From the NCBI RefSeq assembly GCF_028596125.1, contig NZ_CP117229.1, forward strand, positions 1,596,001 to 1,660,000: a stretch of 64,000 bases of DNA. The letters are read 5' to 3'. The notes beneath the pieces are model-generated. The model made no database searches. It was not told where the DNA came from and saw only the letters and a program-made list of their open reading frames with translations. This document shows, one piece after another, positions 5,005-8,964 of the stretch; within the stretch, counting starts at the first letter, position 1, and every line of letters begins with the position of its first letter. A program made the position numbers and the translations under genes. This DNA comes from Listeria innocua. Its GTDB lineage: Bacteria > Bacillota > Bacilli > Lactobacillales > Listeriaceae.

Positions 5005-6819
5005 TTAAAGCGCTTCGTCTAAATCCATTCCGCTATTTTGTAATTGATACATTGAGTGATATACACCTTGTTCTGCAATTAATGAATCATGTGTACCACG
5101 CTCAATAATTCGCCCTTTAGATAAAACTAAAATTAAATCGGCATCCTTAATTGTCGAAAGTCGATGCGCAATCGCAATCGTTGTACGTCCTTCTCTCATT
5201 CGTTTTAACCCAGTTTGAATTAAGCTTTCTGTTTCTGTATCAATATTTGCCGTCGCTTCATCTAACACAAGAATTTGTGGGTTCGTCACAACTGTTCTAG
5301 CAAAAGAAATCAACTGCCTTTGCCCACTTGAAAATGAAGCACCTCGCTCAATAACTTTATGTTGATATTGATCGGATAACGTTTGAATAAAACCATCTGC
5401 TTGAACAAATTTCGCGGCATCCACAATTTGCTCATCCGTAATGTTTTTATCATAAAGACGAATATTCGTGTTAATATCGCCATAAAACATAAAACTATCT
5501 TGTAAGACAAGTCCCGTCTTCTTACGCAATTCAGCAATTTCATGGGATTTAATCGACTTACCATCAATTAAAATATCGCCACGCTCGAATTCATAAAAGC
5601 GCATCATTAAATTGATAATCGAACTTTTACCACTCCCTGTATGACCAACTAAAGCCACCGTTTGACCAGGTTCTGCTGTAAAGCTAATATTTTTAAGTAC
5701 ATCACGTCCGCCTTCATACGCAAACGAAACATCTTTAAACTCAATTTTTGCACGAGTAATTTTTGCTTCTGGATCATTTAATTGAGCTGGGACTTCTTCT
5801 GTTTCATCCATAATACGAAATACTCTAGACGCTGCTGTGATGGCTTCTTGATACATAGCCAAACGTTCCATTACGTTATAAATCGCTTCTAAAAACCGAT
5901 CAAAATAACTAACAAACGCATAAATTGTCCCGATAGCTACAGGACCAGTTAAAGATTCAGCCCCGAAAAAGCTAAGAATAATCACAACTGCTAGCGCGTA
6001 AATCAAGTCAATGGCTGGCCCAAGTAATAGCGCATTAAATTTAATGTTTTTCATTCCAACATCATAATAGTCTTTGTTGATGTGCTCGAATTCTTTTACT
6101 AAACGGCGCTCTTGATTAAATTGTTGCACAATCGACATCCCTGAAATCGACTCAGCAATTTTCGCATTTAATTGGCTTAATTTTTCTCGTCTTGCCCGGT
6201 AAAACTGGGAACTATATTTCCGGTAAACAAAAATAATAAAGACAATAAGTGGGAATAACAGCAAGCTATAAAGCGCTAACTGAACATTGAGCGCAAACAT
6301 CGCCGCATAAATCCCTACGAGCATAAACAAACTTTGAATCGCAGTTGAAAGCACATTAATAAACATATCTTTCACAGCTTCCGTATCATTTGTCACACGC
6401 GAAACGATACTCCCAGCAGGCGTTTTATCAAAATAACGCATGCCGAGTGAATGAAGCTTCGTAAAAATGTCAATCCGCATTTGCTGCACAATTTCAAGCG
6501 CGATTTTTTGGAAATAAAGCAATTGGAAGTACCACACAATGGATTTCCCAATTGTCAGCCCTAAATACCCCGCTCCTAAAATTAACAAAGCTTGCATTTC
6601 TAAATTCATTGGCGTTAAATAATCATCCAAGAATATTTTAATTAAAATTGGCGCGAATACATCTGCAAGCGTTACAAGAAGAACAAGAATTCCAGTCCAA
6701 ATCAAACTTGGAATATGATATTTTGTGTAACTAAGCATTCGCTTTAATACTGCACGGTGTTCTTTACCGGACATCACTAACATTTCGTCTTGTTCATTCA
6801 TCACTTCCATCAGCCGCAC
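5005..6819 (-). CDS. ABC exporter half-transporter, subunit 2 of a heterodimer
   Basis: Type IV (multidrug/lipid) ABC exporter subunit of 604 residues: six membrane helices in the first 320 residues, then the ATPase domain. Walker A is GHTGSGKSS and Walker B is ILVLDEATANID with the catalytic Glu intact. The ABC signature is the altered FSSGQ, and the H-loop is AHRLST. Its start overlaps the upstream subunit by 17-26 bases. GTG at 6817-6819 and ATG at 6808-6810 are both possible starts, each with a G-rich site. Together with the next entry it would form one consensus and one degenerate ATP site, as in BmrCD-type exporters. Substrate is unknown; drugs or lipids are likely. Confidence 0.9.
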   Translation of the reverse strand: MRLMEVMNEQDEMLVMSGKEHRAVLKRMLSYTKYHIPSLIWTGILVLLVTLADVFAPILIKIFLDDYLTPMNLEMQALLILGAGYLGLTIGKSIVWYFQLLYFQKIALEIVQQMRIDIFTKLHSLGMRYFDKTPAGSIVSRVTNDTEAVKDMFINVLSTAIQSLFMLVGIYAAMFALNVQLALYSLLLFPLIVFIIFVYRKYSSQFYRARREKLSQLNAKIAESISGMSIVQQFNQERRLVKEFEHINKDYYDVGMKNIKFNALLLGPAIDLIYALAVVIILSFFGAESLTGPVAIGTIYAFVSYFDRFLEAIYNVMERLAMYQEAITAASRVFRIMDETEEVPAQLNDPEAKITRAKIEFKDVSFAYEGGRDVLKNISFTAEPGQTVALVGHTGSGKSSIINLMMRFYEFERGDILIDGKSIKSHEIAELRKKTGLVLQDSFMFYGDINTNIRLYDKNITDEQIVDAAKFVQADGFIQTLSDQYQHKVIERGASFSSGQRQLISFARTVVTNPQILVLDEATANIDTETESLIQTGLKRMREGRTTIAIAHRLSTIKDADLILVLSKGRIIERGTHDSLIAEQGVYHSMYQLQNSGMDLDEAL

Positions 6820-8563
6820 CCCCTTCTCCTAAAGCTTCCTCTAGTTGTTGCTCATGGAACATTTCTGCATACCAGCCATCTAGCGTCATTAGCTCACTAT
6901 GCGTTCCTCGTTCCACAATTCTCCCTTTATCAATAACAATAATCAAATTAGCATGTTCCACAGAGCTAAGTCGGTGTGCGCTAATGATGGTTGTCTTATC
7001 AGAACGATTCTCTTTTAAATTAGATAGAATCTGTTCTTCCGTTTTTGCATCTACCGCCGAAAGTGCATCATCCAAAATCAGCAATTCTGGATTCATAATT
7101 AAGGCACGTGCGATGGCAAGCCGCTGTTTTTGCCCACCAGAAAGTGAAACTCCGCGCTCGCCGACAATCGTATCATACCCATGTTCAAACCCAAGAATAT
7201 CTTCATCAACGGATACAAGTTGCGCGATTTTGCTCACTTCTTCTTGAGGTGCTTCTGGTTTCCCAAAACGAATATTATCACGCACGGTTGTTGAGAATAA
7301 AAACTGATCTTGTGGCACATAACCGATTGCTTCTCTCAAAGCTCGTACAGTGTAATCTTGAATTTTTACATCAGCAAAAGAAATTTCGCCATCGTACGTA
7401 TCATATTCTCGCATTAATAATTTTAATAACGATGTTTTCCCAGAACCAGTTCGCCCAACAATTCCAAGCGTTTCACCAGATTTTAAGTCAAAACCAATCT
7501 CTGACAATACGGGTTCACTTTCATCTGGATACGTAAATGCATTAATTTCCACATGTAAATTACCTTCTGGCGTAACATCTACTGCATCTGCGTGATCAAT
7601 TACATCTTCTTTTTCCGCAAGCAAATGCTGCACACGGTCGTAAGAAGCATTTCCGCGCTGAATGATATTGTATAAAAATCCAAATGCTAACATCGGCCAA
7701 ATGAGTAAGAATAAATAGTTTGAAAAAGCAATCACTTGTCCAATAGTCAATTCTCCGTCAACAACGAATTTAGCTCCAAACCCTAAGGAAAGCACAAAGG
7801 AAATCCCTACAATAATCGAAATCATTGGATCGAACATCGCATCCACTTTAGCAACCGAAATATTTTTTTGAACTACTTCTTTTGTTTGTTTGGCAAAATC
7901 TTGAATATCTTCTTTTTCTTGCCCAAATGTTCGTGTGACTTTAATTCCTGAAATACTTTCTTGTGTTTTATCATTTAACATCGAAAAAGCAGCTTGAGCC
8001 CCATGGAAACGATCATGTAATTTTTTACCTAAAATCGAACTTCCGAGTACCATAAACGGCATTGGAAGTAATGCAATCAAAGTAAGGCGCCAGTCAATCG
8101 TAATCGCCATGGTTGCAATAACCGTTCCTCCTGTTAACACAGAATCCGATAATGTCAAAACACCAATTCCCGCCACTTGTTGAATAGCGGTAATATCATT
8201 CGTCGCATGTGCCATTAAATCCCCAGTACGATAACGTTGGAAGAAAAATGGTGACATCTTCGTAAAATGTTCGAACAGTCGTAAGCGTAACGTCCGTTGT
8301 AATTTGTTATCAGAACCGAAAATCAACATCCGCCAAACGTAACGTCCAACGTAAGCAAGAACAGCTGCTACAACGAGAATAAGCATCCATTTAATCAATT
8401 TTTCTTTTGTCAGTGAGTCATTTGTGACTGCATCCACCGTGTAGCCAATTATTTGCGGCGGTACTAACTGCAAAAGCGCAATTGTAAATAAAATTGTTAC
8501 CCCAAACGCATAAGACTTCCAATTTTCTTTAAAAAACCAGCTTAATGCTTTAAAAATTTTCAA
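6794..8563 (-). CDS. ABC exporter half-transporter, subunit 1 of a heterodimer
   Basis: Membrane domain with six helices and an ATPase domain, 589 residues. Walker A is GRTGSGKTS and the signature LSGGQ is canonical. Walker B is LLILDDALSAVD, so the catalytic Glu is replaced by Asp. This is typical of the degenerate subunit in heterodimeric exporters. I place the start at the TTG (8561-8563) because GGGAGGG lies eight bases upstream. The longer reading frame to 8629 has no site and runs through a terminator hairpin. It is first in the operon with the second subunit. A leader ORF and hairpin precede it (8596-8783), suggesting induction by attenuation. Confidence 0.9.
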   Translation of the reverse strand: MKIFKALSWFFKENWKSYAFGVTILFTIALLQLVPPQIIGYTVDAVTNDSLTKEKLIKWMLILVVAAVLAYVGRYVWRMLIFGSDNKLQRTLRLRLFEHFTKMSPFFFQRYRTGDLMAHATNDITAIQQVAGIGVLTLSDSVLTGGTVIATMAITIDWRLTLIALLPMPFMVLGSSILGKKLHDRFHGAQAAFSMLNDKTQESISGIKVTRTFGQEKEDIQDFAKQTKEVVQKNISVAKVDAMFDPMISIIVGISFVLSLGFGAKFVVDGELTIGQVIAFSNYLFLLIWPMLAFGFLYNIIQRGNASYDRVQHLLAEKEDVIDHADAVDVTPEGNLHVEINAFTYPDESEPVLSEIGFDLKSGETLGIVGRTGSGKTSLLKLLMREYDTYDGEISFADVKIQDYTVRALREAIGYVPQDQFLFSTTVRDNIRFGKPEAPQEEVSKIAQLVSVDEDILGFEHGYDTIVGERGVSLSGGQKQRLAIARALIMNPELLILDDALSAVDAKTEEQILSNLKENRSDKTTIISAHRLSSVEHANLIIVIDKGRIVERGTHSELMTLDGWYAEMFHEQQLEEALGEGGAADGSDE

Positions 8564-8595
8564 ACAACTATCCCTCCCTTTTTTCCTTAAATTTG

Positions 8596-8658
8596 GACAA
8601 ATAAAAATAATGGACCTATTTCTGCCCATTATTACCCGAAAAAATATATTTATTTGTC
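8596..8658 (-). terminator. Attenuator-like terminator ahead of the ABC exporter operon
   Basis: On the RNA strand a 10-bp hairpin, AATAATGGGC / GTCCATTATT (8606-8633, loop of eight, one G-U pair), is followed by a U-rich TTTATTT. Perfect 9-base arms GACAAATAA/TTATTTGTC (8596-8604 and 8650-8658) enclose it. It lies between a leader ORF and the first exporter gene, 33 bases from its start codon. This is the position expected for transcription attenuation. Confidence 0.65.
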
Positions 8659-8684
8659 ACCACTTTGTATAAAATAAAACCAAC

Positions 8685-8783
8685 TTAAAGGAGAGTTCCC
8701 ATGCTCGCGAAATGGTCCGGTGAAATAAATTCTATTTTTAAGCGCAATAATGCCATGTTTGAAGTCGTAATATAATTATTCAT
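8685..8783 (-). CDS. 32-residue leader ORF upstream of the ABC exporter operon
   Basis: An ATG at 8781-8783 opens a 32-codon frame beginning MNNYITTSNM and ending in ASMGTLL. AAGGAGG lies eight bases upstream and a sigma-A-like promoter (8821-8849) stands right before it. The stop lies about 50 bases before an intrinsic-terminator-like hairpin. The peptide has no signal or membrane segment, so it is more plausibly a regulatory leader than a functional product. In B. subtilis the exporter bmrCD is induced through translation of the small upstream ORF bmrB; the arrangement here is analogous. Its ACCATTT segment could pair with the terminator's 5' arm. The function is inferred. Confidence 0.6.
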   Translation of the reverse strand: MNNYITTSNMALLRLKIEFISPDHFASMGTLL

Positions 8784-8820
8784 CGTCCATTCCTCCTTTG
8801 TTTTATTATGCAACGATATT

Positions 8821-8849
8821 AGTTTAACCGATTTCATTTGAAAGCGCAA
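8821..8849 (-). promoter_or_regulatory. Promoter of the leader ORF / ABC exporter operon
   Basis: Minus strand: TTGCGC (8844-8849), exactly 17 bases, TAAACT (8821-8826). An AT-rich inverted repeat AAATAATT/AATTATTT (8851-8858, 8873-8880) sits immediately upstream of the -35. Confidence 0.6.
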
Positions 8850-8924: not shown

Positions 8925-8964
8925 AAAAGCATAACGATACTTAGTAAGCACCGTTATGCTTTTT
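8925..8964 (-). terminator. Terminator of the protease/partner operon
   Basis: GCATAACG / CGTTATGC stem ending in TTTT on the minus strand, 13 bases after the stop at 8977. Confidence 0.85.

What the first reader, a model, noticed from the sequence alone, without database searches (positions are those of the whole stretch)
8596..8849. Leader-peptide attenuator controlling the ABC exporter operon
On the minus strand a promoter (TTGCGC-17-TAAACT), a strong ribosome site, a 32-codon ORF and a hairpin with U-tract precede the exporter start in that order. A CCATT segment inside the ORF can pair with the terminator's 5' arm. In B. subtilis, bmrCD is induced by ribosome stalling on the bmrB leader ORF. 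This would be a Listeria analogue, induced by ribosome-targeting drugs.
Basis: partly seen in the sequence, partly recalled or inferred. Interest (0 to 1): 0.75.

Follow-up and report, generated by a model that had tools for sequence, protein, structure and literature searches.

The report
Known antibiotic-sensing leader before Listeria exporter
This stretch is the already described Listeria leader RNA rli59, in which ribosomes reading a short coding sequence appear to decide whether the genes of a membrane exporter behind it are switched on, so that slowed protein synthesis turns them on.

Summary
In detail: on the minus strand promoter (8849-8821), Shine-Dalgarno (8799-8792), 32-codon ORF (8783-8685), terminator (8633-8606) and exporter start (8563) lie in that order. 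The element is not new. It is Rfam RF01484, rli59 (223.8 bits, cut-off 100). Reviews of Dar et al. 2016 say that rli59 terminates before lmo1652 unless lincomycin, erythromycin or chloramphenicol is present, by a postulated ribosome-mediated attenuation whose details are missing. I add anatomy. It can pair over at least 9 bases with the terminator's 5' arm in 33 of 33 leaders from two genera. The ORF persists in all 33, but its amino acids do not (pN/pS 1.10), and the pairing word is read in all three frames in different lineages. A one-ribosome folding model switches at codon 1 or 3 in 30 of 32 leaders; at codon 3 in 21 of 32, against 2 of 640 codon-shuffled controls. Covariation within Listeria is not significant. 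Best reading: a sensor of leader translation without a conserved arrest peptide; the mechanism is sharpened, not proven.

The parts
8821..8849 (-). promoter of the leader, TTGCGC-17-TAAACT
   Evidence: TTGNNN-17-TANNNT ending 34-39 nt before the leader start in 33 of 33 leaders; weak match to consensus, not listed by the scan
8644..8824 (-). match to Rfam RF01484 (rli59), full length of the model; stops before the terminator
8792..8799 (-). Shine-Dalgarno of the leader ORF (AAAGGAGG)
   Evidence: GGAGG before the leader ORF in 33 of 33
8685..8783 (-). leader ORF, 32 codons plus stop
   Evidence: SD-led ORF of 30-51 codons in 33 of 33 leaders; translation itself not tested
8744..8752 (-). antiterminator 5' strand, outer helix (CATTATTGC, codons 11-14)
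   Evidence: predicted
8719..8739 (-). antiterminator 5' strand, inner helices (AAAAATA, ATTTATTTCACC)
   Evidence: predicted; cognate strands pair better on average than strands of other lineages
8639..8661 (-). antiterminator 3' strand, inner helices (GGTGACAAATAAAT, TATTTTTT)
   Evidence: predicted
8627..8635 (-). antiterminator 3' strand, outer helix, overlapping the terminator 5' arm (GTAATAATG)
   Evidence: predicted
8606..8633 (-). intrinsic terminator hairpin; U-rich tail to 8598
   Evidence: 10 pairs; same hairpin form found in 33 of 33
8572..8578 (-). Shine-Dalgarno of the exporter (GGGAGGG)
6794..8563 (-). first exporter half, 589 aa (ABC_membrane plus ABC_tran; best match SmdA, below its curated cut-off)
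   Evidence: orthologue in 24 of 25 genus genomes, own included
5005..6819 (-). second exporter half, ORF of 604 aa from a mechanically chosen GTG (best match SmdB, below its curated cut-off)
8925..8963 (-). terminator-like hairpin behind the upstream gene, so the leader is likely its own transcription unit

Best explanation
This is the rli59 leader of the lmo1652-type exporter operon, a ribosome-mediated transcription attenuator. A strand inside the leader ORF (8752-8719) can pair with 8661-8627 into a long antiterminator hairpin that takes the terminator's 5' arm. When ribosomes move freely through the ORF they cover that strand as polymerase reaches the terminator, the hairpin at 8633-8606 forms, and transcription stops near 8600. 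When a 50S inhibitor holds ribosomes on the first codons, or translation of the leader is poor, the strand is free, the antiterminator forms and the exporter genes are transcribed. The peptide sequence is not what is read; occupancy of the RNA strand is. Shown here: parts, conservation and folding potential. Reported by others: termination relieved by lincomycin, erythromycin and chloramphenicol. Inferred: the ribosome-position step and the stall codons.
For: RF01484 match. Reviews report antibiotic-relieved termination at rli59. SD-led ORF, terminator and promoter in 33 of 33 leaders. ORF word pairs with at least 9 contiguous bases of the terminator arm in 33 of 33; 117 of 117 cells paired over 13 distinct versions, reached by 1 of 2000 whole-strand shuffles (the register was the longest pairing of each leader, which favours pairing). 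Own ORF and downstream strands pair at mean -27.7 kcal/mol (32 leaders) against -17.8 for 728 cross-lineage pairings; 25 of 32 leaders have no non-kin partner as good as their own. Modelled terminator probability over 32 leaders averages 0.37 with a ribosome at codon 3 and 0.98 mid-ORF, against 0.96 and 0.92 in 640 codon shuffles; 0 of 20 shuffles reach the real difference in 30 leaders, 2 of 20 in G016 and G032. Codon 1 or 3 below 0.5 with mid-ORF above 0.9 holds in 30 of 32, and in 29 and 27 of 32 with a smaller and a larger footprint.
Against: The model is an equilibrium one with one ribosome: at the stop codon it predicts readthrough in all 14 sensu stricto leaders folded, so termination needs later ribosomes or a lag behind polymerase. 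It predicts readthrough without translation in most leaders (terminator probability below 0.2 in 27 of 32), whereas bmrB without its start codon gave low expression. At codon 3 alone 11 of 32 leaders do not switch; G032 and G033 do not at codon 1 either. In G004 and G010 the untranslated fold is no different from shuffles (10 of 20 as low), and the free fold of G009 is the terminator. Within Listeria alone (16 distinct rows) the outer helix shows no significant covariation: pairing reached by 291 of 500 shuffles, double changes by 27 of 500. In one search seven leaders have 1-5 non-kin partners at least as good as their own. The fold of the whole leader is not unusually stable (z -0.82). I could not read Dar et al. 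2016.
Confidence: 0.85

Rival explanations
1. Arrest-peptide attenuator as in the ermC or TnaC types (recalled): a specific nascent peptide plus drug stalls the ribosome, and the peptide is what is selected.
For: The ORF is kept in 33 of 33 leaders and all 15 sensu stricto ones are exactly 32 codons; the drugs named in the reviews act on the 50S subunit. In codons 10-24 of sensu stricto (pN 0.042, pS 0.076) and codons 1-9 of the sister genus (0.138, 0.288) pN is below pS.
Against: Over the whole ORF pN/pS is 1.10 in 14 distinct sensu stricto ORFs and 0.78 in 7 of the sister genus; variable sites spread evenly over codon positions. Lineages have unlike peptides and the shared word is read in three frames. 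Codons 10-24 hold the antiterminator strand.
Confidence: 0.08
2. rli59 is mainly a small RNA acting elsewhere, the short terminated transcript being the product.
For: Rfam describes it as a Listeria sRNA.
Against: In 15 of 15 genus genomes over the cut-off the listed RF01484 match, one per genome, lies directly before the exporter; strong SD and ORF; Rfam's type is Cis-reg; reviews describe readthrough into lmo1652.
Confidence: 0.03
3. Ligand-binding riboswitch that senses the drug or a metabolite without translation.
For: Alternative hairpins before a terminator.
Against: Between Listeria and the sister genus the inner helices have different sequences while pairing stays, which by inference leaves little room for a conserved pocket; the SD is conserved in 33 of 33.
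Confidence: 0.02
4. Added translational layer: CTCTCCTTT (8695-8687), at the leader stop, masks the exporter or leader Shine-Dalgarno.
For: Against the exporter SD, 8 of 14 sensu stricto leaders reach a shuffle fraction of 0.05 or less; against the leader SD, 6 of 9 other Listeria do.
Against: Against the leader SD 0 of 14 sensu stricto; against the exporter SD 1 of 9 other Listeria; neither pairing in any of 9 sister-genus leaders.
Confidence: 0.15

Closest known systems
rli59 / RF01484, leader of lmo1652 in Listeria monocytogenes
   Same: Same element: model matched over its full length at 223.8 bits, in front of an exporter of the same kind; a review describes termination relieved by lincomycin, erythromycin and chloramphenicol and a small ORF.
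   Different: No difference of kind. The Rfam model stops at 8644, so it omits the terminator and the outer antiterminator helix, and its drawn structure does not show the inner pairing.
bmrB leader of bmrCD, Bacillus subtilis
   Same: Leader ORF, terminator, alternative hairpins, before an ABC exporter gene pair; response to chloramphenicol, erythromycin, lincomycin; a review calls Lmo1651/Lmo1652 homologues of BmrCD (passages).
   Different: bmrB encodes 54 amino acids and its terminator is inside it; here 32 codons, terminator 51 nt beyond the stop. No sequence comparison with B. subtilis itself was made.
rli53 leader of lmo0919, Listeria
   Same: Term-seq attenuator before an ABC protein gene, ORF-linked terminator and antiterminator (passages).
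   Different: Three-codon ORF and lincomycin specificity there; 32 codons and a broader reported response here.

Membership tests
RF01484 rli59 | score above the gathering cut-off over the model | tested here: met
   223.8 bits against 100, model positions 1-181 of 181
RF01484 rli59 | placed directly before the exporter of the lmo1652 type | tested here: met
   only match in the own genome, before the exporter; that the gene is lmo1652 rests on the reviews' naming of rli59's target, as no L. monocytogenes annotation was fetched
RF01484 rli59 | transcript ends at the terminator and extends with ribosome-targeting drugs | not testable with these tools
   reported in reviews only; no RNA data here
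ribosome-mediated transcription attenuators | translated leader ORF | tested here: inconclusive
   SD and ORF in 33 of 33; pN/pS gives no support for a conserved peptide; no profiling data
ribosome-mediated transcription attenuators | mutually exclusive antiterminator whose strand lies in the ORF | tested here: met
   by sequence and folding only; column-wise covariation within Listeria not significant
ribosome-mediated transcription attenuators | ribosome position decides the fold | tested here: inconclusive
   met in a folding model in 30 of 32 leaders, with controls for the codon 3 form; no experiment
bmrB-type leader | terminator inside the coding region of the leader ORF | tested here: not met
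   ORF ends 8685, terminator 5' arm starts 51 nt later
SmdA/SmdB exporter families (NF008055, NF008056) | score above curated cut-off | tested here: not met
   687.3 against 845 and 491.3 against 746; best hits all the same
rli53-type leader | three-codon ORF | tested here: not met
   32 codons

The most novel reading that the evidence does not exclude
rli59 is a sensor of ribosome traffic in which the leader peptide is irrelevant: selection keeps an ORF, a Shine-Dalgarno and one RNA word that is read in three different frames in different lineages, while the inner antiterminator helices are rewritten on both strands. Any block of early elongation, or loss of leader initiation, would then open the exporter operon, which would explain its reported permissive drug response.
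Probability: 0.6. Interest if true: 0.45.

Novelty: already known. Interest (0 to 1): 0.3.

Why it matters
A review says that details of rli59 regulation are missing. The comparison names the likely antiterminator strands, shows that they are kept across two genera while the peptide is not, and gives a simple reason why one leader could answer several 50S inhibitors. It also shows that the Rfam model leaves out the decision element: it is below its cut-off in 10 of 25 genus genomes, 9 of which carry the leader.

Tried and rejected
Synonymous bias as proof of a conserved peptide: absent over the whole ORF (the 51-codon ORF of G033 was left out, 7 distinct of the other 8 sister-genus ORFs used). 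Anti-Shine-Dalgarno near the leader stop as a general part: not beyond chance in the sister genus. Formal covariation of the outer helix within Listeria: not significant; 17 of the 23 Listeria leaders without an assembly gap were given to that alignment, close sensu stricto ones dropped, and 16 rows were distinct. The inner helices could not be tested by columns because the DNA alignment does not keep their register. Global stability of the leader: not unusual. Two genomes of a third GTDB genus, which I take for Brochothrix (recalled, no call names them), have an exporter orthologue at 57-58%, but I see no such leader by eye. The leader of G015 has a run of N inside and was left out (32 of 33 used). 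Dar et al. 2016 is not held. Lineage labels inside the script are partly guesses and are not used as names here. The mid-ORF codon was chosen.

Full report
What is there. Read on the minus strand, the window holds TTGCGC-17-TAAACT at 8849-8821, AAAGGAGG at 8799-8792, an ORF from ATG 8783 to TAA 8685 (32 codons), a hairpin at 8633-8606 with a U-rich tail, GGGAGGG at 8578-8572 and the exporter's TTG at 8563. A terminator-like hairpin at 8963-8925 separates the leader from the gene upstream. Two ABC exporter halves follow, with membrane and ATPase domains, best matched by SmdA and SmdB models below their curated cut-offs.

It is known. The stretch 8824-8644 matches Rfam RF01484, rli59, over the whole model at 223.8 bits against a cut-off of 100. 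I saw passages of three reviews. PMC8079631 says that rli59 has a small ORF, that its termination before lmo1652 is hampered by lincomycin, erythromycin and chloramphenicol, that details are missing and that ribosome-mediated attenuation is postulated after Dar et al. 2016. PMC7154746 and PMC5295033 agree in short. The original paper is not held. Searches for rli59 and for lmo1652 with Listeria gave 3 and 5 papers, for lmo1651 one. Passages of PMC12153296 name lmo1652 among genes hit in a transposon screen on activation of the virulence programme.

Relatives. In 25 genomes of the genus, own included, 24 have an orthologue of the first exporter half at 70% identity or more; G021 has none. RF01484 is above its cut-off in 15 of 25, in each directly before the exporter; these 15, with exporters 92% or more identical, I call sensu stricto (label recalled). 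In 36 genomes of the family, 9 of a second GTDB genus (sister genus below) and 2 of a third also have orthologues. By eye, 6 of the 9 share their leader with the named records Listeria riparia, booriae, rustica, cornellensis, rocourtiae and newyorkensis. Of the 24 plus 9, 33 of 33 leaders have an SD-led ORF of 30-51 codons before a terminator of the form TAATGG...CC(A/G)TTATT plus T run, and a TTG-17-TA promoter. The two of the third genus, which I take for Brochothrix (recalled), show no such leader by eye. RF01484 at its cut-off finds none of the four leaders of this kind that were (L038, L053, L055, L131).

The switch. In 33 of 33, a word in the ORF (CATTATT or a variant such as CATTGTT or CCGTTATT) pairs over 9 or more contiguous positions with the terminator's 5' arm. 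With the start region held unpaired and the RNA cut before the terminator's 3' arm, it is the base of a long hairpin in the 13 leaders that I printed; of three free full-length folds printed, G000 and G034 show the antiterminator and G009 the terminator. Inner helices differ between lineages: ATTTATTTCACC with GGTGACAAATAAAT here, TATATCGA with TCGATATA in the sister genus. As separate strands, own pairs reach a mean of -27.7 kcal/mol and cross-lineage pairs -17.8 (n 32 and 728); for 25 of 32 leaders no partner from another lineage is as good as its own, the other 7 have 1 to 5. Column-wise support is thin: within Listeria the outer helix has no significant covariation; across all groups 13 distinct versions are paired in 117 of 117 cells, a total that 1 of 2000 whole-strand shuffles reached. 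There the register was the longest pairing of each leader, and related sequences are not independent.

The peptide. Within 14 distinct sensu stricto ORFs pN/pS is 1.10, within 7 of the sister genus 0.78; variable sites at codon positions 1, 2 and 3 number 6, 10 and 9 in the first group and 12, 12 and 13 in the second. What is kept is RNA plus the fact of an ORF, not amino acids.

Ribosome position. I computed, for 32 leaders, the probability of the terminator with a ribosome footprint placed on each codon. In the 14 sensu stricto leaders folded it is 0.03-0.56 at codons 1-6, 0.92 or more at codons 7-18, and 0.02 or less at the stop. Over 32 leaders the mean is 0.37 at codon 3 and 0.98 mid-ORF; in 640 codon-shuffled ORFs 0.96 and 0.92. 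Codon 3 below 0.5 with mid-ORF above 0.9 holds in 21 of 32 real leaders and 2 of 640 shuffles. If codon 1 or 3 may serve, 30 of 32, and 29 or 27 with smaller or larger footprints; that looser form was not run on shuffles. G004, G010 and G013 switch at codon 1 but not at codon 3; G032 and G033 at neither. The mid-ORF codon was 12, or 17 in six leaders with longer N-termini, chosen by me after and used alike for shuffles. The model is an equilibrium one with one ribosome. It predicts readthrough in 27 of 32 leaders when nothing is translated (probability below 0.2), which differs from the bmrB result and is a clear test.

Comparison. bmrB encodes 54 amino acids and has its terminator inside the ORF (passages); rli59 would work like it but is built otherwise. 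RF01484 ends at 8644, before the terminator, and its drawn structure has no antiterminator.

Verdict.

Noticed in passing
L080-L129, about 90-200 nt before the exporter start: Of 50 exporter homologues outside Listeria (45-61% identity, mostly Bacillaceae and relatives), 41 have a 16-20 codon SD-led ORF ending in acidic-Gly/Ser-Gly or close to it; the last three codons occur in 21 spellings, and the stop is TAG in 40 of 41, against 33 of 197 long ORFs of the same loci. In many, by eye, a further ORF of 21-30 codons and terminator-like hairpins lie upstream. No Rfam match in the 9 such loci among the 16 searched. It looks like a peptide read at termination, the opposite of rli59.
   Followed up: partly
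L068, L070-L074, L081: Enterococcus homologues have a 12-codon SD-led ORF 62-64 nt before the exporter start, such as MGQQQMKDVSAQ, behind a terminator-like hairpin.
   Followed up: no
window 8644-8606: The Rfam model RF01484 stops before the terminator of the element that it describes.
   Followed up: yes
L134: One sister-genus leader (G033) has an ORF of 51 codons, not 32, that runs into the terminator's 5' arm, which recalls bmrB.
   Followed up: no
window 8687-8695: CTCTCCTTT at the leader stop can pair with both Shine-Dalgarno sequences; it is kept in sensu stricto leaders, but pairing is not beyond chance in the sister genus.
   Followed up: partly
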